Assembly: GCF_030908245.1 (NCBI RefSeq)
Contig: NZ_JAVFJJ010000004.1
Location: forward strand, 62,001-126,000
From: Sinomonas sp. ASV322
GTDB taxonomy: Bacteria; Actinomycetota; Actinomycetes; Actinomycetales; Micrococcaceae
Direction: 5' to 3'
DNA length: 64,000 nucleotides
The notes beneath the pieces were generated by a model. It saw only the letters and a program-made list of their open reading frames with translations. It did no database searches and was not told the DNA's origin. The translations under genes and the position numbers were made by a program. Below are positions 53,591 through 62,856 of this stretch, in pieces (the first letter of the stretch is position 1; each line of letters begins with the position of its first letter).

Positions 53591-54286
53591 TCAGGACCGG
53601 GGCGAGGCCTTCGCGTCCTTGAGGGCCCGGTCCCGCACGTGGGCAATGTGCGCGGCCATGGCCCCGCGCGCGCGTTCGGGGTCACCTGACGCGAACGCGG
53701 TGAGGATGTCGGTGTGCTCGGCGATCGCGTGCTCGGCGTCCGTCACTCCGAGGTTCCCGAAGAAGCGGAAGCGCTGCACCTGGCCGCCGAGGGCGTTGTA
53801 GGCGTTGAGCAGGAATCGGTTGTGGGCGTTCGCGGCGATGATGCGGTGGAAGCGCTCGTCGGCCTCCCAGTAGGCGCCGTACTCCGCGAACGTGGGGCCG
53901 GTGGGTGCCCCGCGGAGATCGTCGACGGCCTTCTCGAGCTCGGCGCGGAACTCCGGCGCCACGTGGGCGCACGCCCGTTCGGCGATGGCAGGCTCGATGA
54001 CCGCGCGCGCGTCCATGAGCTCGGCGAGCTCTTCGGCCGTGAAGAGGGGAGCGACGCGGTAGCCCTTGAGGGCCTCGCGCCGCACGAGGCCCGTGGCCTC
54101 GAGGCGCGCGAGCGCTTCGCGGATGGGGGTCTGGGAGACCTCGAGCTCCTGGGCCATGCGGTCGATCCCTATGCCGGAACCGGGCTCGAGCCGCCCGTCC
54201 ATGAGGGATGCCAAGAGCTCCTGGTAGACGTAGTCGGCCAGGAGCTGGCGGTTGGCGGGCCGGGGGCCACCTGAGAGGGCGGGCAT
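53591..54286 (-). CDS. GntR family regulator, FCD subfamily
   Basis: 231 residues: a winged helix with SQTPIREALARLEATGLVRR as the recognition part (about 50-70) and an all-alpha FCD ligand domain from about 90 to 220 (ELMDARAVIEPAIAERA; the metal-binding His residues lie in HRIIAANAHN and AEHTDI). It probably senses a sugar-acid intermediate and represses the cluster to its right. A half copy of the cluster operator overlaps its own promoter, which suggests autoregulation. It is the last gene of the minus-strand cluster. Confidence 0.92.
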   Translation of the reverse strand: MPALSGGPRPANRQLLADYVYQELLASLMDGRLEPGSGIGIDRMAQELEVSQTPIREALARLEATGLVRREALKGYRVAPLFTAEELAELMDARAVIEPAIAERACAHVAPEFRAELEKAVDDLRGAPTGPTFAEYGAYWEADERFHRIIAANAHNRFLLNAYNALGGQVQRFRFFGNLGVTDAEHAIAEHTDILTAFASGDPERARGAMAAHIAHVRDRALKDAKASPRS

Positions 54287-54294
54287 GGAAGAAA

Positions 54295-54306
54295 ATCCTA
54301 TATGAG
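54295..54306. promoter_or_regulatory. Half copy of the cluster operator before gntR
   Basis: ATCCTATATGAG: eight bases match the left half of ATCCTATAGGAT at 58752 and 62722; the right half has drifted. On the minus strand it overlaps a TAGGAT -10, 8 nt before the gntR ATG. Confidence 0.5.
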
Positions 54307-54327
54307 GGCGGAAGCGTAGGTCAGCAC

Positions 54328-54360
54328 ATGCGGGCCGCCAGCTGGTCTGGCGGCCCGCAT
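54328..54360 (-). terminator. Hairpin between the ACS transporter gene and gntR
   Basis: ATGCGGGCCGCCAG, loop CTGGT, CTGGCGGCCCGCAT: a perfect 14-bp stem 34 nt after the transporter stop on the minus strand. It separates gntR from the catabolic operon; there is no U-run. Confidence 0.8.
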
Positions 54361-54393
54361 GAGTGTGCTGCGTGCCCCGGGCGGGGCGCCTTG

Positions 54394-55761
54394 CTAGTGG
54401 TGGGCGACGGGTTCGAGCAGCTCGTCCGACTTGGCGGTGCGGAAGTACTTTGTCCCGAAGACCATGGCGGCTGCGACAAACGCGAACACGCCGAGCGAGA
54501 CGACGCCCCAGACGCCGCTTGGGGTCGGGACGGCGTCGTTGATGCTGGTGCGCATGAGCGGGGCGACGAAGCCACCGAGGTTGCCCAGGGAGTTGATGAG
54601 GCCGATGCCGGCCGCGGCGGCTGCCCCCGTGAGGAACGAGGTCGGGTAGGCCCACGTGATCGGGCCGACCGTGAGGAAGCTCGCGACGGCGAGCGTGATG
54701 AACAGGATGCCGAGGACGGGCTGGTGGTTCGCTCCGGCCCAGCCCGAGCCGACGATCGTGAGGCCGGTGAGGACGTAGCAGGCGGTGCCCCACGCGCGGC
54801 GGCGGACAATAGTGTTCGCGGCCTTGCCGAAGAAGTAGCACGCGAAGAGGCCCACGAGCCACGGGAGGGCCGAGATGACGCCGACCTCCCAGCCGACCTT
54901 CTTCCCGATGAGGGAGGCGACCTGCTGGGGGAGGTAGAACGTCGTCCCGTACACCGCGATCTGGAGTGCGAAGTAGATGACGGTGAAGTACCAGACCTTC
55001 CAGTTGCCCATCGCACGCCAGATGCCCGTGGGGCCGTCCTCGGTGCGAACGCGGTCCTCGAGGGCCATGACGTCGATGAGCGCGGCCTTCTCGTCCTCGT
55101 CGAGGAACTTCGCCTTGGCGGGGCTGTTCGTGAGGAAGAAGAGCGCGGCGATGCCCGCGATGACCGCGAGCAGGCCCTCGACGAAGAACATGACCTGCCA
55201 GCCGCGCGCGAAGCCGAGCGAGTCGCCGAAGCTGATGAGGCCGCCGCTGAGCGGGGCGCCGATCATCTGCGAGAACGGCTGCGCGAGGTAGAAGATCGCG
55301 AACATCTGCACGCGGACCTTGTTCGGGAACCACTCCGAGAGGAACATGATGACGCCCGGGAAGAGCCCGGCCTCGGTCACGCCGAGGAGGAAGCGGAGCA
55401 CGTTGAACATGACGTCGTTCGTCGTGAACGCGAAGGCCGCGGCGACGATGCCCCACGTGATCGCGATCCGGGCGAGCCAGAATCGCGCCCCGAAGCGCTT
55501 GAGGAGCAGGTTGCTCGGGACCTCGAAGAGCGCGTAGCCGATGAAGAAGATGCCGGCGCCGAGGGCGAAGGCCCCGGCGCTGACCCCGCGGTCGGTGCGG
55601 AGCGCGGCCTCGGCGAAGCCGACGTTCGTGCGGTCGAGGAACGCCACGAAATAGAGGATCACGAGCATCGGCATGAGGTGCCGCGCGGCCTTGGAGATGG
55701 CGGACTTGAGGGCCGCGCTGCCGACCTCGGCGGTCAGCGGATTGCCAGTTGAGGTGGACAC
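54394..55761 (-). CDS. MFS transporter, anion:cation symporter (ACS) type
   Basis: 455 residues, 12 helices. PMLVILYFVAFLDRTNVGFA is the ACS-family first helix, and ARIAITWGIVAAAFAF with FLLGVTEAGLFPGVIMFLSEWFP the helix 4-5 region. ACS members import hexuronates, galactonate, tartrate and similar sugar acids, so the cluster substrate is likely an acid. GTG 55761 has AAGGAGAGAC directly upstream; a longer frame of 27 codons reads as low-complexity non-coding sequence. Confidence 0.92.
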   Translation of the reverse strand: MSTSTGNPLTAEVGSAALKSAISKAARHLMPMLVILYFVAFLDRTNVGFAEAALRTDRGVSAGAFALGAGIFFIGYALFEVPSNLLLKRFGARFWLARIAITWGIVAAAFAFTTNDVMFNVLRFLLGVTEAGLFPGVIMFLSEWFPNKVRVQMFAIFYLAQPFSQMIGAPLSGGLISFGDSLGFARGWQVMFFVEGLLAVIAGIAALFFLTNSPAKAKFLDEDEKAALIDVMALEDRVRTEDGPTGIWRAMGNWKVWYFTVIYFALQIAVYGTTFYLPQQVASLIGKKVGWEVGVISALPWLVGLFACYFFGKAANTIVRRRAWGTACYVLTGLTIVGSGWAGANHQPVLGILFITLAVASFLTVGPITWAYPTSFLTGAAAAAGIGLINSLGNLGGFVAPLMRTSINDAVPTPSGVWGVVSLGVFAFVAAAMVFGTKYFRTAKSDELLEPVAHH

Positions 55762-55850
55762 GTCTCTCCTTTGAGATGGTTCTTGTCCGGGTGCGAACGG
55801 GGATTGAGGGCGGGTTGGGTGGGTACGGGCAGATCGGGTCAAGCTGGGTA

Positions 55851-55958
55851 TCAGGCGGGATGCCCGACGATCGAGACGATGCCGACGACGACGAGGACGA
55901 CGCCGATGGCAAGGTACGCGAGGCGGGCTTTCGACCAGTTCGAGAAGATCGAGCTCAT
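55851..55958 (-). CDS. 35-residue single-helix membrane peptide
   Basis: A tiny gene, MSSIFSNWSKARLAYLAIGV at the start, then a Val-rich helix ending in GHPA. It has a short amphipathic head (residues 1-13) and one membrane helix (about 14-32). GAAAGG stands 8 nt before the ATG. It lies between the SDR gene (19 bp) and the ACS transporter gene (89 bp) on the same strand, so it is part of the operon. Small helices of this kind often stabilise a transporter; here that is inference. Confidence 0.7.
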   Translation of the reverse strand: MSSIFSNWSKARLAYLAIGVVLVVVGIVSIVGHPA

Positions 55959-55977
55959 GGCTGGGCCTTTCGTGGAA

Positions 55978-56751
55978 TCAGTGCATATACAGGCCGCCGT
56001 CGACGTTCAGGGTCTGGCCCGTCACGAAGCCCGCGTCCTCGCTGATGAGGTAGGCGATCGCCGCGGCGATGTCGCGCGGAGTGCCGATGCGCGGCAGCAC
56101 GCCGTCGGCCGCCATCTTCTCCTTGCGGTCATCGGTGAGCGTGCCGCCCATGATGTCGGTGTCGATCGGGCCCGGGGAGACCGCATTGACAGTGATGCCC
56201 CGAGGGCCGAGCTCGCGGGCGAGGCTCCGCGTGAAGCCGATGACGCCGGCCTTCGCGGTCGAGTAGACGGTCTTGCTGAACGTGCCGCCGCCGCGCTGGG
56301 CCGAGACCGACGAGAGGCTCACCACGCGGCCGACGCCGTGCCGCACCATGGTCTCGACGGCGCGCTTGGTCGTGTGGTGGACGCCGTGGAGGTTGATGTC
56401 GATGACGCGATGCCATTCCTGCGGAGTGACCTCGAGGTAGTCGACGGGGGACGAGACTCCCGCAAGATTGACGACGGCGACGACCTGGGGAAGGGCGGCC
56501 TCGAGCTCGTCGAACGCGGCGCGGACCTGGTCCTCGTCGGCCACGTTGGCGCCCGCGCCCGCGGCGACGACGCCGTGCTGCTCGGCGACCTCGGCCGCGA
56601 CGGCCTTCGAGGCCTCGGCGTCGAGGTCGAGGATGCCGACGTTCCAGCCGTGCTCGGCGAGGTAGTGCGCGGTGTATCGGCCGATGCCGCGCGGCGAGGC
56701 GGCGCCGGTCAGGATGACGCTGCGCTGTTCGGGAAAGACAGGGGTGGTCAT
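55978..56751 (-). CDS. Short-chain dehydrogenase/reductase
   Basis: A classical 257-residue SDR. The cofactor loop is TGAASPRGIG (residues 15-24), and an Asp after strand 2 (ILDLDAEAS) indicates NAD(H). NLAGVS follows; the catalytic Ser is in SLSSVS (about 150), and Tyr163 and Lys167 in YSTAK. AGGAG precedes the ATG. In this cluster it probably oxidises a hydroxyl of the sugar acid or polyol; dehydrogenases of D-threitol and related C4 compounds belong to this family. Specificity is not readable. Confidence 0.92.
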   Translation of the reverse strand: MTTPVFPEQRSVILTGAASPRGIGRYTAHYLAEHGWNVGILDLDAEASKAVAAEVAEQHGVVAAGAGANVADEDQVRAAFDELEAALPQVVAVVNLAGVSSPVDYLEVTPQEWHRVIDINLHGVHHTTKRAVETMVRHGVGRVVSLSSVSAQRGGGTFSKTVYSTAKAGVIGFTRSLARELGPRGITVNAVSPGPIDTDIMGGTLTDDRKEKMAADGVLPRIGTPRDIAAAIAYLISEDAGFVTGQTLNVDGGLYMH

Positions 56752-56773
56752 AGGGTTTCTCTCCTTGGGGTGA

Positions 56774-57727
56774 TCAGTTGATGGGCGCGGGGCCGAGCTC
56801 GTCCATGAGCTTCTTGATGGCCACGTAGGCCTTGTTCCGGTAGGCGACGAGCTCTGGGATCCGCTCGGCGGGCACATCGAGGTAGCCCGCGCCGGACTTC
56901 GTGCCGAACTTGCCGGCGTCGACGAGCTCGCGCAGCGACTCGGGCGTCGCAAATCGCTCAGGCCAGCGGGTCTGGAGCGACGCATAGCAGAACGAGTAGA
57001 CGTCGAGCCCGGCCATGTCCGCGATCGCGAACGGGCCGAACGCCGGGAGCCGGAAGCCGAACGTCGTGCGGACGATCGTGTCGATGTCGTTCGGGGTCGC
57101 GATGCCCTCCTCGACGATCTGGGTTGCCTCGTGGAAGAGCGCGTACTGGAGCCGGTTGAGCACGAAGCCGGTCGCGTCCTTGATCCGCGCGGTCTCCTTC
57201 CCGGTTGCCGCGACGAGTTCCTCGACGAAGGGTAGGATCGCCTCGTCCGTCCCTGCGTGCGGGATGAGCTCGACGCCGGGGATGAACGGAGCGGGGTTCG
57301 AGAAGTGCACGCCGAGGAACCGCTCGGGCCCCGTGACCGCCTCGGCGAGGCTGCCGATGAGAATCGTCGACGTGTTCGAGCCGATGATCGCGTCGGGGCG
57401 CGCGGCGGTGCTGATGCGGCGGAGCGTCGCGTGCTTGATCTCGATCTTCTCCGGGACGGCCTCCTCGATGAAGTCGGCGTCCGCAACCGCGTCCTCGATC
57501 GAGGCAGCAGCCGTCAGGTTCGCCTCGATGCGCTCCACGGCGTCGGCGGGGAAGAGCCCCTCGGCCGCGAATTCGGCGGCCTCGCGGAGCAGACGCTCGC
57601 GGTTCGACGCCGCGACCTCCGCGGTCACGTCGGCGATCTTGACGGTGGCGCCGGCAAGGGCGAGCGACTGTGCGATGCCGCCTCCCATATAGCCGGAGCC
57701 GACGACGGCGATTCTGCGGAGAGTCAT
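56774..57727 (-). CDS. 3-hydroxyacyl-CoA-dehydrogenase-family oxidoreductase
   Basis: 317 residues. N-terminal Rossmann fold with VGSGYMGGGIAQSLALAG, the PEKIEIKHATLRRI and SNTSTILIGSLAEAV segments, and the catalytic His in GVHFSNPAP. The all-alpha C-domain has GFVLNRLQYALFHEA and GPFAIADMAGLDVY. Family members oxidise 3-hydroxyacyl-CoA, L-gulonate (lambda-crystallin type) or L-carnitine. Among sugar genes, oxidation of a 3-hydroxy group on a free sugar acid is more likely than fatty-acid work. AAGGAGG stands just ahead of the ATG. Confidence 0.9.
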   Translation of the reverse strand: MTLRRIAVVGSGYMGGGIAQSLALAGATVKIADVTAEVAASNRERLLREAAEFAAEGLFPADAVERIEANLTAAASIEDAVADADFIEEAVPEKIEIKHATLRRISTAARPDAIIGSNTSTILIGSLAEAVTGPERFLGVHFSNPAPFIPGVELIPHAGTDEAILPFVEELVAATGKETARIKDATGFVLNRLQYALFHEATQIVEEGIATPNDIDTIVRTTFGFRLPAFGPFAIADMAGLDVYSFCYASLQTRWPERFATPESLRELVDAGKFGTKSGAGYLDVPAERIPELVAYRNKAYVAIKKLMDELGPAPIN

Positions 57728-57762
57728 TGAGTCCTCCTTTGGACCGGGCTGCTTGAGGGCTG

Positions 57763-58698
57763 TCAGGCCTTGGGCAGCAGAGAGCGGATGTACTTCTGGT
57801 TGGTCGCGCACATGCCCAGGCTGTCGCCCCCGTAATGCTCGGCGAGGATGATGCCGGAGAAGCCGAGGGCGATCGCGTCGCGGAACACCTGGCGGTAGTT
57901 GATGAGGCCGGCTTCCATGGTCGACGGCGCGGACGTCGCCCAGCTGCGGTCAGCGGCCTCGTCCCGCGTGTAGTTCTTGACGTGCCAGTAGTTGGCGTAG
58001 GGGAGCGTCTTGGCGAAGAGCTCGCGCCAGTCCTCGACGGGCCGGTGCAGGCGGATGAGGTTGGCGACGTCGGGGTTGAGGCCGACGTTGTCGAGCCCCA
58101 CCTCTTCGACGAAGCGCACCGCGCTGTCGGCCGTTCCGAGGTACGTGTCCTCGTAGAGCTCGAGGGAGACGGGCAGGCCCAGCTCGGCGGCGTGCTTGCC
58201 GAGCTCGCGGATGCGGCGGACGGCGAGGTCCCACATCTCGGGGTCGGCAGGGTCCTTGGGGCCCTCCGCCGTCCAGAACCAGAGGGCCTTGCGCTGGGCG
58301 TCGCTGAAGGGCTGGTGCAGGCCGGTCGAGAAGACCTTCATGCCCCATTCGGCGGCCGCGTCGATCGTGCGGTGGGCGTACTCGAGGTTGCGTTCGTCCT
58401 GGCCGGGCATGATGATGCTCTGGCGCTGGAGGTGCACGGACGGGATGCCGACGCCGTAGGACGCGGCGACTGCGAGGAACTCGTCGCGACGCGAGGGCTC
58501 AAGGTCCGCGGGCCGCACGTGGCTGTCCGCGAGTTCGGCGAGCGTGAAGCCGACGTCGGCGATCTGCGCGAACATGTCGTCCCAGACCTGTGGATCGGCG
58601 TCGTGCATGCTGACGCCGAGTGCGTCCTTCGCGGGGAACGCGTGCAGACACGTGGCGATGGGCCAGGTTTCGGCGGTGTATGGAGGGGTCTCCGGCAT
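57763..58698 (-). CDS. Xylose-isomerase-like TIM-barrel sugar isomerase/epimerase or decarboxylase
   Basis: 311 residues of the PF01261 AP-endonuclease-2 type barrel. Likely metal ligands are Glu in LPVSLELYEDTYLG, Asn/Asp in VGLNPDVANL, His in YWHVKNYT and Glu in GIILAEHYGGD. The family includes hydroxypyruvate isomerase, EryC-type tetrulose-phosphate enzymes and 3-oxo-isoapionate decarboxylase. ATG 58698 has CGGAG 7 nt ahead; a TTG five codons earlier is less likely. It is the first gene of the catabolic operon, 54 nt from the operator. The exact reaction is open. Confidence 0.87.
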   Translation of the reverse strand: MPETPPYTAETWPIATCLHAFPAKDALGVSMHDADPQVWDDMFAQIADVGFTLAELADSHVRPADLEPSRRDEFLAVAASYGVGIPSVHLQRQSIIMPGQDERNLEYAHRTIDAAAEWGMKVFSTGLHQPFSDAQRKALWFWTAEGPKDPADPEMWDLAVRRIRELGKHAAELGLPVSLELYEDTYLGTADSAVRFVEEVGLDNVGLNPDVANLIRLHRPVEDWRELFAKTLPYANYWHVKNYTRDEAADRSWATSAPSTMEAGLINYRQVFRDAIALGFSGIILAEHYGGDSLGMCATNQKYIRSLLPKA

Positions 58699-58737
58699 GA
58701 TGCTCCGTTGCAAAGTCGAGGTCCTGAGGTCCTTCAG

Positions 58738-58743
58738 ATTCTA
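58738..58743 (-). promoter_or_regulatory. -10 hexamer of the TIM-barrel operon
   Basis: TAGAAT on the minus strand, within TATAGAAT. The ATCCTATAGGAT operator begins 8 bp upstream, so a bound repressor would block polymerase. Confidence 0.55.
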
Positions 58744-58751
58744 TAGCAAAG

Positions 58752-58763
58752 ATCCTATAGGAT
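58752..58763. promoter_or_regulatory. Palindromic operator ATCCTATAGGAT, copy 1
   Basis: A perfect 12-bp palindrome followed by ATATG, upstream of the TIM-barrel operon. The whole 17 bp ATCCTATAGGATATATG is repeated exactly at 62722. It is a probable GntR site. Confidence 0.82.
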
Positions 58764-58818
58764 ATATGGTCATCCGGACAGCCGATCGAGCAGAACTCTT
58801 GCCCAGCTCTATTTGTAA

Positions 58819-58831
58819 GATGTCTGACATC
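58819..58831. promoter_or_regulatory. Palindrome GATGTCTGACATC, candidate second GntR site
   Basis: 6-bp perfect arms (GATGTC/GACATC) with one central base. The form TGTCnGACA fits FadR/FCD-type GntR sites. It is 141 nt upstream of the second gntR and 121 nt from the TIM-barrel start. Confidence 0.6.
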
Positions 58832-58971
58832 AAGTCTCCATGGGCACGCGCATCTGTCAAGGGGAGGGGCTTCGCATCGGCGGGCGCGCTCCGCGCCGAC
58901 GCCGGTGGGCAAGCCGCCGTCCAGGACACGCGACGCCCCTAGACTACGAGTGAGAACACGGACGGAGGACG

Positions 58972-59667
58972 ATGGCTCGAAAGTCGCTCGTCGGCGAGGT
59001 CGCCGACGATCTTCTGGATCGAATTGTGGCGGGGGAGTTCCCCCCGGGGGCGCTTGTCCCCGGGGAGCTCGAGCTCTCGGCCCGGCACGAGGTGAGCCGC
59101 ATGACCGTCCGAGAGGCCATGAAGACCCTCGAGGCGCAGCGGATCCTGAGCGTCCAGCGAGGACGCGGGACGTTCGTCAACGCCGTCGACCAATGGAACT
59201 CCCTCGAAGCGCTCCTGCGCGCGGCATCGGCGCACGTGGGAAACGAGGCGGCCGGCATCCAGCTCATCGAGCTGCGCCGCATGCTCGAAACCGGTGCGTG
59301 CGCGCTCGCGGCCCCGCGGATCGCCGATGGCGAGCTTGCGCGACTGCGTGGGTTCCTCGACACGATGAGAGACGCCCATGACCGGGGGAACGTGGACGAG
59401 TTTGTTGCCGCCGACCTCGCGTTCCACGACGTCATCCTCGAGGCGTCCGGCAACGTCTTCCTGACGGCCGTCTTCCAGCCCCTCCACCGCGTGCTCGAGG
59501 CGCGACGCAAGGAAACATCGAGGGTGCCGGACATCCAGGAGCACGCCCTCGGGATGCACGCGGCCGTGCTCGCGGCCCTCGAATCGCGGGACCCGAAGGC
59601 CGCGAGCGACGCGATGGACGCCCACATGACGCAGACGCTCGACGACCTTGTGAACTACGTCCAGTAG
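58972..59667 (+). CDS. GntR family regulator, FadR-like (FCD)
   Basis: 231 residues: winged helix with ELELSARHEVSRMTVREAMKTLEAQRIL and the RGRGTFVN wing, then an FCD domain (LRRMLETGACALAAPRI; DLAFHDVILEASGN and HAAVLAALESRD carry the metal His residues). CGGAGGACG lies before the ATG and a TAGACT -10 at 58938. It is divergent from the TIM-barrel operon and overlaps the tpiA-like gene by 13 bp at its 3-prime end. It is the best candidate for binding the shared operators, with the other GntR as rival. Confidence 0.93.
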   Translation: MARKSLVGEVADDLLDRIVAGEFPPGALVPGELELSARHEVSRMTVREAMKTLEAQRILSVQRGRGTFVNAVDQWNSLEALLRAASAHVGNEAAGIQLIELRRMLETGACALAAPRIADGELARLRGFLDTMRDAHDRGNVDEFVAADLAFHDVILEASGNVFLTAVFQPLHRVLEARRKETSRVPDIQEHALGMHAAVLAALESRDPKAASDAMDAHMTQTLDDLVNYVQ

Positions 59668-60440
59668 CGCGCGCCCGCCGTTGCGAGCGCGAGGGCTTCG
59701 TCGAGGATCGCCTCGAGCGACGCGGGCCGGTGAGCGAAGCGGCCGAGGAAAAGCCCGTCGACGTCGTCGGCAATTTCCGTGAGGAGGCCGGGCCGGGCGC
59801 TCCCGCCGTAGATCACGGCCGAATCGCGGAAGTCCGTCAGGCCCTGAACATGCTCGCGCACAAGCGAGCACACGGCGCGGATGTACGCCGGCTCGGCGGG
59901 CTCGCTCGCGCCGATCGCCCAATGTGGCTCATAGGCGACGATGACGCGCCCGGAGCGGCCCGCCGCGCGCGCCGAGGCGAGCGCGTCGTCGATCTGGCGG
60001 ATGCATTCGCGCGCGGCGTCGGCGTGCGCGAGCCGCGCCGCCTCGCCGACGCACAGCACGGGAGAGAGCCCGTTGCGCAGCGCGGCGAGCGCCTTGGCTC
60101 GCACGACGTCGTCCGTCTCGCCGAAAAGGCTTCGCCGCTCGGCATGGCCGACCTCGACGACGCCGCAGCCGAGCTCGGCGATCTCCGCCCCGCTCACCTC
60201 GCCCGTGAAGGCACCCGAATCTGCTGCCGCGAGATCCTGCGCGCCCACGCGTGCCACGCCGTCGAGGATGCCGAGGGCGGCGGGCACCGAGAGATACGTC
60301 GGGATCACGAAGAGCTCGGCATGGCCTTCGCGCACGGCCGCGTGCGACCGCCCAAGCTCGGCGACCGCCCGGCACCACTCGACCGTCTGGGCGTGGCCGA
60401 AGTACATCTTGAGGCTCACGCCGAGGAGGAAGCGCGGCAT
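59655..60440 (-). CDS. Triose-phosphate-isomerase-like enzyme, probable tetrulose-phosphate isomerase (TpiA2/EryH type)
   Basis: 261 residues of the TIM fold. Catalytic residues are kept: Lys11, His99 (VEVGHAERRS), Glu171 (VAYEPHWAIG) and the phosphate loop YGGSA. The canonical Asn of the N-x-K start is Ser (VSLKMYFG), and loop sequence differs from glycolytic TpiA, which is expected elsewhere in the genome. TpiA2 proteins next to RpiB and DHA-kinase genes interconvert L-erythrulose 1-phosphate and D-erythrulose 4-phosphate. ATG overlaps the rpiB-like stop by 1 bp. Confidence 0.88.
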   Translation of the reverse strand: MPRFLLGVSLKMYFGHAQTVEWCRAVAELGRSHAAVREGHAELFVIPTYLSVPAALGILDGVARVGAQDLAAADSGAFTGEVSGAEIAELGCGVVEVGHAERRSLFGETDDVVRAKALAALRNGLSPVLCVGEAARLAHADAARECIRQIDDALASARAAGRSGRVIVAYEPHWAIGASEPAEPAYIRAVCSLVREHVQGLTDFRDSAVIYGGSARPGLLTEIADDVDGLFLGRFAHRPASLEAILDEALALATAGARYWT

Positions 60441-60901
60441 CACACGCCCTCGTACGCGCAGATCTCCTGAACCTTCTCCTGCGAGTGGCTCGTCTCGTCG
60501 AACTCGTACGTGAGCCATTCGCGGACGTTGCGGCGCGCGAGCTCGAGGCCGATGACCCGCTGGCCCATGCACAGCACCTGCGCGTTGTTGGAGAGCACGG
60601 ATCGCTCGACGGAGAAGGCATCATGCGCCGTGACGGCGCGGATGCCCGGGACCTTGTTGGCCGCGATCGCGACGCCGAGGCCCGTCCCGCAGATGAGGAT
60701 CGCGCGGTCGGCCTGGCCGCGCGCGACGAGCTCCGCAGCGCTCGTTGCGATGGCCGGATAGTTCGTGTGCGCGCCGGCGGCGACGCCGACATCGGTCACG
60801 GACGCGACCAGGCCGCTCGCCTCGAGGTCCTTCTTGATGGCCTCTTTGTACTCGAAGCCCGCGTCGTCCGAGCCGACGACGATGCGCCACTGCTGTGCCA
60901 T
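60440..60901 (-). CDS. RpiB/LacAB-family sugar-phosphate isomerase, probable D-erythrulose-4-phosphate isomerase
   Basis: 153 residues of the RpiB fold. The active-site Cys71 lies in [13 protein letters not shown], and the [14 protein letters not shown] segment is typical. The usual Asp-His-Ala-Gly near the start is Asp-Asp-Ala-Gly ([11 protein letters not shown]), an unusual change at a substrate-side position that argues against plain ribose-5-phosphate isomerase. EryI-type enzymes of this family convert D-erythrulose 4-phosphate to D-erythrose 4-phosphate. A strong AGGAGG precedes the ATG. Confidence 0.88.
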
Positions 60902-60955
60902 GGGTGCCTCCTGGGGTGGGTGGGAACGTGGGTTGCGGATGAAAGGGAGTCGCCG

Positions 60956-62692
60956 TCAGTCGGCGGCGAGAAGTTCAACGACCGCCGTCGCGATGAGGGC
61001 GAGCGAGACGGCGCCGGGATCCGGCACCCCGAGCGCCTTGTCGCCGTGCGAGCGCGCGCGGCCCATGCCGGGGAGCAGATCGGCCGTGTCCTGGGCGGCC
61101 TTCGTCGCGGCCTTCGCGGCGGCCTCCCACGCGGTCGCGAGGTCTTCGCCATCCGCGACGCCGGCCGCGAGGGTCGCTGCGAACGGCACGAGCGCGTCGA
61201 CGAGGGTCTTGTCTCCCACGCGCGCCTTCCCGTACGCCATGACCGACTCGGCGGCCTCGCTCAGGCCGGCCGCGACGCGCTCGCGGGTGAGGGATTCGCC
61301 GTCGTTCGCACGGGAGCCGAGCGTGCGGAGGATGACGCCCCACAGCGCGCCCGAGGTGCCGCCCGCACGGTCCGCCCACGCGTCGCCGACCCCCACGAGA
61401 AGCGTTCGCGCGCCGGCCCCGCGGGCGGCGAGGTCCGCAGCCTCGGCGGCCGCAGCGCGTGCCCCGCGCTGCATGCCGATGCCGTGGTCGCCGTCGCCCG
61501 CGATGGCATCGAGGCGCCCGAGCTCGTCGGCATGCGCGTCGATGGTCTCGCGCACGGCCGCGAGAAGCCCCGCGATGCGGCGGGCGGCCTGTCGCGACTC
61601 CGTGCTCGCGGCGGGAATCGCACGCACGGCGGCCTCGGCGTCGACGTGCGGGGCGTCGTGGGCCGGGGCGAGCCCGCTCTGGTCGAAGGCTCCCGTGCGG
61701 AACGCGGGCGTGTCCGCGGGGGCGCCCCAGAGCTCCTCGAGCTCGTCGTCGAGCCACAGGAAGGTCAAGGAGACCCCTGCCATGTCGAAGCTCGTGCAGA
61801 ACTCGCCGACCTGCGGATCGACGAGCGTGATGCCGCGTGCCTCGGAAAGCTCTGCCACGCGCCGGTAGACGACGAACAGCTCTTCGGATTTGACGGAGCC
61901 GAGCCCGTTGAGGATGGGAACGACGCGCGCGCCGGTCGCGTCCGCGACGGGCACCTCCGCGTCGGCGAGGAGGTGTTCGAGGAAGAGCTCGGCGAGGCCG
62001 TCCGCGGTCGGAATGGCGGTCTCGGCGAGGCCGGGCTCGCCGTGGATGCCGAGGCCGATCGCCATGCGCCCATCGGGGACGGAGAACAGCGGCTCGGCAG
62101 CCCCGGGCATCGTGCAGCCGCTGAACGCGACACCCATCGAGCGGGTCCTCGCGTTGGCACGCCGCGCGACGCGCTCGACGTCGTCGAGGCTCCAGCCGCG
62201 CGACGCCGCCGCGCCGGCGATCTTGAACACGGTGAGGTCGCCCGCGATGCCGCGGCGTTTCTCGGCTTCGTGCGGGCTCGCGGAGAAGATGTCGTCGGTG
62301 ACCGTCACCGTTCGGCACTCGATGCCGTCGGCTCGGAGCGCCTCTTGGGCTTCCGTGAAATGGAGGACGTCGCCCGCGTAGTTCCCGTAGCTGAGCAGCA
62401 CGCCGCGGCCGCGATGGCTCGCGCGCGCGACTGACTCGACCTGGTGGGCGGATGGGGACGCGAAGAGATTGCCCATCGCGGCGCCGTGGGCGAGGCCCGG
62501 GCCGACGAGGCCAGCGAACGCGGGATAGTGGCCGCTTCCGCCGCCGATCACGACCGCGACCTCGGGCTCCGCCGCGACCGTCGAGCGGGAGACTCCGCCG
62601 TGGACCTTGCGGACCCACCGGGCGTTCGCGCGGGCGAAGCCGTCCACCATTTCGTCGGCGAAGTCGGCGGGTTCGTTCCAGAGTCGCGTCAC
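60956..62692 (-). CDS. Fused DhaK-DhaL kinase, probable tetrulose or dihydroxyacetone kinase
   Basis: 578 residues. Residues 1-330 are DhaK-like: VVIGGGSGHYPAFAGLVGPG, NYAGDVLHF and GIHGEPG form the substrate site that binds the ketose covalently through His. After a short linker, about 375-578 are DhaL-like, with the metal/ATP motif AGDGDHGIGMQRG. Fused ATP-dependent kinases of this type phosphorylate dihydroxyacetone or L-erythrulose. First gene of the kinase-rpiB-tpiA operon; GAGGAG stands before the GTG and the operator 30 bp ahead. Confidence 0.92.
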   Translation of the reverse strand: MTRLWNEPADFADEMVDGFARANARWVRKVHGGVSRSTVAAEPEVAVVIGGGSGHYPAFAGLVGPGLAHGAAMGNLFASPSAHQVESVARASHRGRGVLLSYGNYAGDVLHFTEAQEALRADGIECRTVTVTDDIFSASPHEAEKRRGIAGDLTVFKIAGAAASRGWSLDDVERVARRANARTRSMGVAFSGCTMPGAAEPLFSVPDGRMAIGLGIHGEPGLAETAIPTADGLAELFLEHLLADAEVPVADATGARVVPILNGLGSVKSEELFVVYRRVAELSEARGITLVDPQVGEFCTSFDMAGVSLTFLWLDDELEELWGAPADTPAFRTGAFDQSGLAPAHDAPHVDAEAAVRAIPAASTESRQAARRIAGLLAAVRETIDAHADELGRLDAIAGDGDHGIGMQRGARAAAAEAADLAARGAGARTLLVGVGDAWADRAGGTSGALWGVILRTLGSRANDGESLTRERVAAGLSEAAESVMAYGKARVGDKTLVDALVPFAATLAAGVADGEDLATAWEAAAKAATKAAQDTADLLPGMGRARSHGDKALGVPDPGAVSLALIATAVVELLAAD

Positions 62693-62721
62693 GGGGTCTC
62701 CTCATCGAGTGATCGAGCTAC

Positions 62722-62733
62722 ATCCTATAGGAT
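62722..62733. promoter_or_regulatory. Palindromic operator ATCCTATAGGAT, copy 2
   Basis: Second exact copy of the 17-bp ATCCTATAGGATATATG element, 30 bp upstream of the kinase GTG. A TGACA half-palindrome follows at 62741, similar to the GATGTCTGACATC site at 58819. Confidence 0.82.
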
Positions 62734-62856
62734 ATATGCCTGACAGATGATTGGGAAGGCGACTGGTTCGCGCCCGTGGGCGGCCGTTCGCTCCCCGACA
62801 AGCGCCGTGCGCCCGCGTCGCGGCGCCTCCGACGGCTCGTGCGGGAGGGTGGACGC

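What the first reader, a model, noticed from the sequence alone, without database searches (positions are those of the whole stretch)
53591..62733. Two-operon sugar-acid cluster predicted to reach D-erythrose 4-phosphate through a tetrulose
Seen: ACS-type MFS, 35-residue peptide, SDR, 3-hydroxyacyl-CoA-dehydrogenase-family enzyme and PF01261 barrel in one operon; DhaKL kinase, RpiB-like and TpiA-like enzymes in another; two GntR regulators. Known: DHA-type kinase, TpiA2 (EryH) and RpiB (EryI) form the module from L-erythrulose to D-erythrose 4-phosphate in erythritol, threitol and apionate catabolism; PF01261 includes a 3-oxo-isoapionate decarboxylase and EryC; the 3-HADH family includes L-gulonate 3-dehydrogenase. 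Inference: a C5 sugar acid is imported, oxidised at C3 by the 3-HADH-type enzyme, decarboxylated by the barrel to a tetrulose, then phosphorylated and isomerised. I know of no described pathway with this exact set (3-HADH instead of the apionate oxidoisomerase, with an SDR and an ACS permease).
Basis: partly seen in the sequence, partly recalled or inferred. Interest (0 to 1): 0.85.

Follow-up and report, generated by a model that had tools for sequence, protein, structure and literature searches.

The report
Sugar-acid regulon feeding erythrose 4-phosphate
A set of genes found in many soil and plant bacteria appears to work as one switchable unit that imports an unidentified sugar acid and turns it into a common metabolic intermediate, by a route that looks like a new variant of known sugar-acid pathways.

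Summary
The reading is partly supported and can be sharpened. The two operons are one regulon: the 13-mer TATCCTATAGGAT, allowing one mismatch, occurs only in their two promoters in the 4.34 Mb Sinomonas-type genome, and the palindrome recurs before the orthologous genes in dozens of Actinobacteria. The gene set travels together: of 80 named loci, HADH is in 72, the kinase in 69, all six other enzyme/transporter genes in 50. In five loci a PdxA-type dehydrogenase plus a Tct transporter replaces HADH, SDR and MFS; rhizobial plasmids have that version too. Transporters belong to three acid-transporter families. HADH resembles a free-acid enzyme at its active site. Kinase, Tpi and, less firmly, Rpi match tetrulose enzymes. 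So sugar acid, oxidation at C3, tetrulose, D-erythrose 4-phosphate is a well-supported frame. Not supported: kinship of the barrel to OiaC, EryC or hydroxypyruvate isomerase. It forms a subfamily with the solved but unassigned 5tnv, and its decarboxylase role is inference. The substrate is unknown; L-lyxonate or L-xylonate from plant ascorbate breakdown is my leading guess.

The parts
53591..54286 (-). GntR1, FCD-type regulator; likely reader of the TATCCTATAGGATA operator
   Evidence: GntR + FCD domains; of nine barrels without the site, four are in loci without a clear GntR1 ortholog, two are paralogues, two lie inside PdxA operons and one has 4 mismatches. Against: L054, L071 and L078 have the site but no GntR1 hit in the fetched stretch
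54294..54307 (.). degenerate operator-like copy before GntR1
   Evidence: 3 mismatches, within chance for the window; copies within 3 mismatches before GntR1 in 7 of 31 loci
54394..55761 (-). ACS-type MFS sugar-acid permease
   Evidence: TIGR00893 254 bits, below cutoff 395
55851..55958 (-). 35-aa single-TM peptide, motif W-[ST]-K-[SG]-R-x-x-[FY]-L-x-x-G
   Evidence: similar short ORF in 47 of 57 SDR-MFS gaps, window included; no Pfam or NCBIfam hit
55978..56751 (-). SDR oxidoreductase, accessory step unknown
   Evidence: PF13561 219 bits; tblastn hit in 63 of 80 loci, none labelled in the L118 GntP-type cluster
56774..57727 (-). 3HCDH-family dehydrogenase, predicted C3 oxidation of a free sugar acid
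   Evidence: catalytic-type S120/H141/E153/N191 at least 97% conserved in 75 sequences (roles recalled)
57763..58713 (-). PF01261 barrel, subfamily of 5tnv; predicted beta-keto sugar-acid decarboxylase (ATG start at 58698 also possible)
58751..58764 (.). operator 1, TATCCTATAGGATC, promoter of the barrel operon
58820..58830 (.). second palindrome ATGTCNGACAT, probable GntR2 operator left where relatives have a DUF1537-LtnD unit
58972..59667 (+). GntR2, FCD-type regulator; in near relatives divergent from DUF1537-LtnD genes
59655..60440 (-). TpiA2/EryH-type isomerase (predicted L-erythrulose 1-phosphate to D-erythrulose 4-phosphate)
   Evidence: on the catabolic side of a 99/97 split from housekeeping TIM, long branches flagged
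60440..60901 (-). RpiB-family isomerase, predicted EryI type (D-erythrulose 4-phosphate to D-erythrose 4-phosphate)
   Evidence: shares HD-[FY]-S-x-E-R-x3-S-N motif with the EryI-type protein, not with E. coli RpiB or the genome's distant RpiB; 4 RpiB matches in the genome; NCBIfam names it ribose-5-phosphate isomerase
60956..62692 (-). fused DhaKL kinase (predicted erythrulose kinase)
   Evidence: Dak1 + Dak2; 60% identical to the kinase of an Erwinia apionate-type cluster
62721..62734 (.). operator 2, TATCCTATAGGATG, promoter of the kinase operon

Best explanation
The two operons form one GntR1-controlled regulon for catabolism of a sugar acid, most likely a C5 aldonate of L configuration. 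Proposed steps: the MFS (with its 35-aa partner) imports the acid; the 3HCDH-family enzyme oxidises its C3 hydroxyl (in other lineages a PdxA-type enzyme does); the PF01261 barrel decarboxylates the 3-oxo acid to L-erythrulose; DhaKL makes L-erythrulose 1-phosphate; the TpiA2-type and RpiB-type isomerases turn it into D-erythrose 4-phosphate. The SDR probably brings an alternative or epimeric acid into the route. Shown by sequence: gene content, shared and genome-unique operator, conservation, dehydrogenase and transporter swaps, kinship of the last enzymes to tetrulose modules. Inferred: substrate, C3 regiochemistry, decarboxylation by the barrel, stereochemistry, the regulator's role. My rough odds by step: one regulon 0.95; tetrulose to erythrose 4-phosphate 0.85; sugar-acid import 0.85; oxidation at C3 0.65; barrel as decarboxylase 0.45.
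For: Operator only at the two promoters in 4.34 Mb at up to one mismatch; within 3 mismatches before 76 of 79 barrel and 49 of 56 kinase genes that have an upstream gap of 50 bp or more, random palindromes mean 0.1, max 2; 125 of 129 core decamers in 1.73 Mb lie before labelled pathway genes, seven control palindromes give 0 sites. Co-occurrence in 80 named loci by tblastn: HADH 72, kinase 69, Rpi 68, Tpi 66, SDR 63, MFS 58, all six 50 (hits of any identity at 50% coverage, so some SDR and MFS hits are paralogues; by clustering 75, 71, 71, 66, 67 and 60 of 86 loci). One same-strand run in Arthrobacter-type loci. Dehydrogenase swap: 5 of the 8 loci without HADH carry PdxA and Tct genes, 2 end at a contig end, 1 (L071) has neither; 4 label changes on the quick barrel tree, 2 forced by well-supported branches. 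Rhizobial PdxA-TctCBA-barrel-DhaKL clusters. GntP permease in L118. HADH shares SNP..IIP/IP with free-acid enzyme 4om8 where the three CoA enzymes shown have FNP..MKLVE or MQLVE. Tpi and Rpi group with or share motifs of tetrulose enzymes; the same DhaKL-Rpi-Tpi module in an Arthrobacter polyol-type cluster and an Erwinia apionate-type cluster.
Against: No enzyme was assayed. The barrel has no clear kinship to the candidate decarboxylase OiaC, and its nearest structures after 5tnv are tied at Z about 24-25 across dehydratase, hydratase, epimerase and unassigned entries. PdxA-type enzymes can yield decarboxylated product themselves (recalled), which would leave the barrel another task. PdxA-type proteins also occur without barrel or kinase in the fetched stretch. 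NCBIfam puts Rpi above cutoff as a ribose-5-phosphate isomerase and below cutoff in the rhizobial DerI model. HADH scores almost as well with a CoA enzyme as with 4om8 (160 against 162 bits). Eleven of 80 loci lack the kinase in the fetched stretch, and three have the operator without a GntR1 hit. The SDR is unexplained. DUF1537 and LtnD genes of C4-acid catabolism are in 28 and 25 of 86 loci, so a C4 acid is not excluded. The family is patchy: 4 of 396 sampled genomes of the phylum.
Confidence: 0.45

Rival explanations
1. The barrel is an isomerase or epimerase (for example of erythrulose or of a keto acid); the 3-oxo acid decarboxylates spontaneously or on the dehydrogenase.
For: The barrel goes with two unrelated dehydrogenases, one of which (PdxA type) is recalled to yield decarboxylated product by itself. 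The best sequence matches beyond 5tnv are mostly ketose 3-epimerases, though weak, and epimerases are among the tied structural neighbours; a ketose 3-epimerase solved with L-erythrulose, 5h1w, is listed at Z 22.7.
Against: The one polyol-type cluster I looked at with the same kinase and isomerases has no such barrel annotated, and an epimerase making L-erythrulose from D-erythrulose would be a detour, since D-erythrulose 4-phosphate is the later intermediate anyway (inference).
Confidence: 0.27
2. The substrate is a branched or apionate-related acid (for example isoapionate), so the operon is an alternative entry to the known 3-oxo-isoapionate to L-erythrulose step.
For: Same downstream module as the Erwinia apionate-type cluster; one locus (L050) has ApnO-like and ApnL-like genes within 10 kb upstream of the barrel; the best hhalign score among the four reference barrels was the Erwinia OiaC candidate, though weak.
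Against: ApnO-like protein in 1 of 86 loci and OiaC-like in 0 of 86; barrel and OiaC candidate have no significant BLAST similarity.
Confidence: 0.12
3. The substrate is a C4 acid (threonate or erythronate), oxidised to 3-oxo-tetronate, decarboxylated to dihydroxyacetone and phosphorylated to DHAP.
For: The kinase family is named for dihydroxyacetone; DUF1537 and LtnD-like genes, enzymes of C4-acid pathways (PMC12540250, passages), are in 28 and 25 of 86 loci and in several directly precede the barrel.
Against: RpiB and a TpiA2-type enzyme distinct from the housekeeping copies would have no role, yet both are with the kinase in 62 of 80 loci. In the window's genome DUF1537-LtnD lies elsewhere and has a different palindrome. 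OtnI- and OtnC-like proteins (E. coli queries) in 0 of 86 loci; the F_bP-aldolase type of OtnC was not looked for.
Confidence: 0.1
4. Ordinary co-location of unrelated metabolic genes.
For: HADH, SDR and DhaKL families are large and versatile.
Against: Genome-unique shared operator and co-occurrence over many genera.
Confidence: 0.02

Closest known systems
D-apionate route through 3-oxo-isoapionate decarboxylase OiaC (Carter et al. 2018, recalled; paper not held)
   Same: Decarboxylation of a 3-oxo sugar acid by a PF01261 barrel to L-erythrulose, then Dha-type kinase, TpiA2, RpiB (recalled); an Erwinia E602 cluster served as stand-in.
   Different: First enzyme is 3HCDH family (or PdxA), not an oxidoisomerase; the barrel is not detectably OiaC-like; ACS permease and SDR beside it.
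Tetritol catabolism: Brucella/Ochrobactrum erythritol (EryH, EryI) and Mycolicibacterium smegmatis threitol/erythritol pathways (PMC12780249, passages; primary papers not read)
   Same: Tetrulose phosphates to D-erythrose 4-phosphate; TpiA2- and RpiB-type isomerases; Dha-type kinase in the actinobacterial form (enzyme names recalled).
   Different: Entry here is a sugar acid with dehydrogenase and barrel, not a polyol dehydrogenase or FGGY kinase (EryA-, EryB-, EryC-like proteins in 0 of 86 loci).
PDB 5tnv, xylose-isomerase-like TIM barrel from Mycobacterium smegmatis
   Same: Same subfamily: 44% identity, Z 40.6, rmsd 1.9 over 304 residues, E 8.7e-112.
   Different: No function in the entry title; no paper with that code in the held library.
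L-threonate / D-erythronate catabolism (LtnD, DUF1537 kinase; PMC12540250 and PMC10580937, passages)
   Same: Sugar-acid theme; LtnD and DUF1537 genes adjoin the barrel in some relatives.
   Different: Different palindrome and a separate place in the window's genome; no E. coli-type OtnI or OtnC in the neighbourhoods.
Mammalian L-gulonate 3-dehydrogenase (lambda-crystallin) plus decarboxylase giving L-xylulose (recalled)
   Same: 3HCDH-family oxidation at C3 of an aldonate followed by decarboxylation to a ketose.
   Different: C6 substrate; HADH here scores higher with 4om8 than with lambda-crystallin (162 against 107 bits).

Membership tests
Tetrulose-to-D-erythrose-4-phosphate module (Dha-type kinase, TpiA2/EryH, RpiB/EryI) | TpiA-like protein separate from housekeeping TIM and on the side of EryH | tested here: met
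   Split 99/97 between 14 catabolic rows (EryH-type among them) and 2 housekeeping TIM rows; long branches flagged
Tetrulose-to-D-erythrose-4-phosphate module (Dha-type kinase, TpiA2/EryH, RpiB/EryI) | RpiB-like protein of EryI type | tested here: inconclusive
   Shares the HD-[FY]-S-x-E-R motif with the EryI-type row, but the tree is weak there; NCBIfam TIGR02133 ribose-5-phosphate isomerase 207.6 against cutoff 168.2, rhizobial DerI model 144.8 against 240
Tetrulose-to-D-erythrose-4-phosphate module (Dha-type kinase, TpiA2/EryH, RpiB/EryI) | Kinase acts on erythrulose | not testable with these tools
   Only context: 60% identity to the Erwinia kinase
D-apionate / OiaC pathway | D-apionate oxidoisomerase (PGDH_C-type) in the cluster | tested here: not met
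   ApnO-like BLAST hit in 1 of 86 loci (L050), not in the window; the ApnO label of the query rests on context and recall
D-apionate / OiaC pathway | Barrel is an OiaC ortholog | tested here: not met
   BLASTP E 0.45 against the Erwinia OiaC candidate; 0 of 86 loci with an OiaC-like protein. The OiaC label itself rests on context and recall
Erythritol (ery) pathway | EryA kinase, EryB dehydrogenase and EryC barrel | tested here: not met
   0 of 86 loci for each, queries from one rhizobial plasmid; barrel against EryC hhalign E 0.12
Hydroxypyruvate isomerase / OtnI | Barrel is an ortholog of Hyi or YgbM | tested here: inconclusive
   hhalign E 0.012 (Hyi) and 0.0066 (YgbM), low probability; 0 of 86 loci with BLAST hits; not among the 50 structure rows shown, which excludes nothing
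5tnv subfamily of PF01261 | Full-length sequence and structure match | tested here: met
Acyl-CoA 3-hydroxyacyl dehydrogenases | Active-site segment FNP..(MK or MQ)LVE and shortened loop before the GP motif, as in the three CoA enzymes shown | tested here: not met
   Window has SNPAPFIPGVE and no deletion, like free-acid enzyme 4om8 (4 of 34 matches viewed as alignments). Substrate itself not testable
FHMPC dehydrogenase (NF042925) | Score above curated cutoff | tested here: not met
   210 bits against cutoff 500

The most novel reading that the evidence does not exclude
A previously undescribed oxidative-decarboxylative pathway for C5 sugar acids (L-lyxonate or L-xylonate from plant ascorbate breakdown), in which the 5tnv barrel family is a second, independently derived PF01261 beta-keto sugar-acid decarboxylase, fed interchangeably by a 3HCDH-type or a PdxA-type dehydrogenase and ending in D-erythrose 4-phosphate.
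Probability: 0.33. Interest if true: 0.75.

Novelty: new variant of a known kind. Interest (0 to 1): 0.6.

Why it matters
It would give a function to a solved but unassigned enzyme family (5tnv) seen here in Micrococcales, other Actinobacteria and rhizobia, and define a catabolic regulon with a ready-made operator signature (TCCTATAGGA) for annotating the genomes that carry it (206 relatives of the barrel matched). If the substrate is an ascorbate-derived pentonate, it would show one fate of C5 acids that plants release: a review states that L-lyxonate and L-xylonate form from ascorbate and that the roles of most such products are far from clear (PMC11066805, passages).

Tried and rejected
Rejected: (1) barrel as an OiaC, EryC or Hyi/OtnI ortholog. 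All four hhalign runs used one sequence on one side, so they are weak tests. (2) HADH as an ordinary acyl-CoA enzyme. (3) The kinase operon as a separate polyol operon: the shared unique operator speaks against it. (4) Rpi as the housekeeping copy: the genome has four matches and the distant one differs in its motif.

Led nowhere: papers on isoapionate + erythrulose, 5TNV (16), apionate (84, one unrelated hit), guessed S. meliloti locus tags (94), operator string (105). Searches gave background only; 83 and 106 show 15 rows of long lists. Carter 2018, Zhang 2016 and Huang 2015 are not held, so earlier description of this gene set cannot be excluded. My recalled C. necator plasmid location for OiaC showed no such cluster among the annotated features of the stretch fetched. 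The operator (up to 3 mismatches) was not found in ten other stretches: five rhizobial plasmid, one Erwinia, one Arthrobacter plasmid and three of the own genome. Three of the five ATGTCNGACAT places in the genome lie at predicted gene starts and look coincidental. Of 18 loci with GntR2, 12 lack the exact ATGTCNGACAT form.

Dropped rows and errors of mine: the L140 RpiB row was read on the wrong strand and is ignored. L107 is labelled 'none' because my gene finder missed its HADH, which tblastn finds. One search counts only genes with at least 50 bp of upstream gap. One search used 46 of 89 barrel sequences and alignment A1 36. GntR1/GntR2 tblastn counts may include cross-hits, so I quote cluster counts for them. 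The first gene finder was poor and replaced.

Full report
WHAT IS THERE. The barrel is in 15 of 15 genomes of the genus, 10 of 118 of another actinobacterial genus and 4 of 396 sampled genomes of the phylum, the window's own included. The near operon reads barrel - HADH - SDR - 35-aa peptide - MFS - GntR1; the far operon DhaKL - Rpi - Tpi; GntR2 lies between them on the other strand.

ONE REGULON. Both promoters carry TATCCTATAGGAT exactly, in a near-perfect palindrome. With up to one mismatch this 13-mer occurs at these two places only in the whole genome held. In the orthologous loci the 14-mer TATCCTATAGGATA lies within 3 mismatches in the 300 bp before 76 of 79 barrel genes and 49 of 56 kinase genes with an upstream gap of 50 bp or more; random palindromes of the same letters gave means of 0.1 and 0. 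The core TCCTATAGGA occurs 129 times in 1.73 Mb of 86 loci (window included). Of these, 125 lie before barrel, kinase, GntR1, PdxA or other labelled genes, three before an extra MFS gene in Sinomonas (D-galactonate type in L043), and one at L107:8974, close before the place where tblastn finds GntR1. Of 86 barrels, nine lack the site within 400 bp: four in loci without a clear GntR1 ortholog (L050, L056, L100, L108), two paralogues (L121, L122), two inside PdxA operons (L070, L072; L072 has the site before PdxA), and L118 with 4 mismatches. Conversely L054, L071 and L078 have the site but no GntR1 hit in the stretch held. GntR1 is the probable reader of this operator; binding was not tested.

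CONSERVATION AND SWAPS. One scan of named genomes with the barrel gave 80 loci (206 relatives matched and the best 80 were kept). By tblastn at 50% coverage, HADH is in 72, kinase in 69, Rpi in 68, Tpi in 66, SDR in 63, MFS in 58, kinase+Rpi+Tpi in 62, all six in 50 of 80; some SDR and MFS hits are low-identity paralogues. By protein clustering over 86 loci the counts are HADH 75, kinase 71, Rpi 71, SDR 67, Tpi 66, MFS 60, GntR1 75. Barrel and HADH are directly adjacent on one strand in 56 of the 75 loci where both were called. In Arthrobacter-type loci the set is a single same-strand run barrel - kinase - Rpi - HADH - SDR - MFS - Tpi. Of the eight loci without HADH, L067 and L104 end at a contig end, L070 and L072-L075 carry PdxA plus Tct genes (Pfam was run on the L075 members, TctB is by position), and L071 has neither. 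L051 has both types. On a quick barrel tree of 46 rows the HADH/PdxA label changes 4 times, 2 of them forced by well-supported branches. Rhizobial plasmids have GntR - PdxA - TctCBA - barrel - DhaKL. Three unrelated transporter families known for organic or sugar acids thus accompany the same barrel. I take this as the best evidence for an acid substrate.

THE DEHYDROGENASE. HADH scores best with 4om8, an enzyme of a free pyridine carboxylate (162 bits), and nearly as well with a 3-hydroxybutyryl-CoA enzyme (160). At the active-site segment it reads HFSNPAPFIPGVE; 4om8 reads HWSNPPHIIPMIE; the three CoA enzymes shown read HFFNP then VMKLVE or LMQLVE. It also shares the undeleted loop before the GP motif with 4om8. 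In 75 relatives 154 of 317 positions are at least 97% conserved.

THE BARREL. The model is confident (pLDDT 88.8). 5tnv stands far above all else (Z 40.6, 44% identity); the next rows are tied at Z about 24-25 and include IolE, SCO6571, Art22, a hydratase and ketose 3-epimerases. Metal-site-type residues E180, D210, H239 and E287 and residues R92, W140, W142, R216, R219, K241 and R245 are nearly invariant in 89 sequences (roles assigned from recall of related barrels). These do not distinguish decarboxylase from epimerase.

THE LAST STEPS. Tpi lies with the rhizobial EryH-type protein, an Arthrobacter polyol-type cluster and the Erwinia apionate-type cluster, apart from the genome's own and E. 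coli TIM (99/97, long branches flagged). Rpi shares an HD-[FY]-S-x-E-R motif with the EryI-type protein, unlike E. coli RpiB or the genome's distant copy, but NCBIfam names it ribose-5-phosphate isomerase. Two further DhaKL-Rpi clusters occur in the same genome.

THE C4-ACID NEIGHBOURS. In several Sinomonas relatives DUF1537 and LtnD genes stand between GntR2 and the barrel. The window lacks them there, but a 67% identical DUF1537 and an LtnD lie elsewhere in the genome. ATGTCNGACAT lies between GntR2 and DUF1537 in five loci, before DUF1537 in one more, between GntR2 and the barrel in the window, and before the pair on contig C1; three control patterns gave 2, 0 and 0 sites, and 12 of 18 GntR2 loci lack the exact form. 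So GntR2 probably belongs to a threonate-type unit, not to the tetrulose regulon. A paper on L-threonate describes LtnD and a DUF1537-type kinase in an Arthrobacter three-step pathway (PMC12540250, passages).

SUBSTRATE. Threonate, L-lyxonate and L-xylonate all arise from plant ascorbate (PMC11066805, passages). Oxidation at C3 and loss of C1 from an L-pentonate gives L-erythrulose, which is what the TpiA2 step needs (established chemistry, my inference). This is a hypothesis; isoapionate and C4 acids remain open.

LITERATURE LIMITS. The rows listed by searches show no description of this gene set in the held library; 83 and 106 are capped lists, and three key papers are not held.

Noticed in passing
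window 55851-55958: 35-aa single-TM peptide between SDR and MFS is conserved (motif W-[ST]-K-[SG]-R-x-x-[FY]-L) in 47 of 57 SDR-MFS gaps, probably a small MFS partner; the most hydrophobic short ORF was chosen in each gap.
   Followed up: partly
window 58820-58830 and genome C1:192780-192790: Palindrome ATGTCNGACAT before GntR2 matches one before the distant DUF1537-LtnD pair, suggesting control in trans after a rearrangement.
   Followed up: partly
L143 (genome C1:16000-32000): Another cluster with DhaKL, Rpi, an SDR and a different PF01261-like protein, beside two genes that look like a split transketolase; similar to S. meliloti L136 and Shinella L137 clusters.
   Followed up: no
L050:3-8071: ApnO-like and ApnL-like genes, a DUF1537 kinase and an HpcH/HpaI aldolase within 10 kb upstream of the barrel, a possible link to apionate.
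   Followed up: partly
L061:1877-8296: myo-Inositol genes (iolC, mmsA, iolB, iolD) upstream of barrel-HADH in Clavibacter; iolC-cluster genes also near Arthrobacter loci.
   Followed up: no
L108:8697-12826: Barrel and HADH flanked by an FMN-dependent 2-hydroxyacid dehydrogenase and an SMP-30-type lactonase.
   Followed up: no
L042:18380-19702, L043:15243-16559, L046 near 19774: Extra MFS genes carrying the same operator core, likely added members of the regulon.
   Followed up: partly
L145: A PdxA-TctCBA unit in Chelatococcus with an amidohydrolase and without barrel or kinase in the stretch fetched.
   Followed up: no
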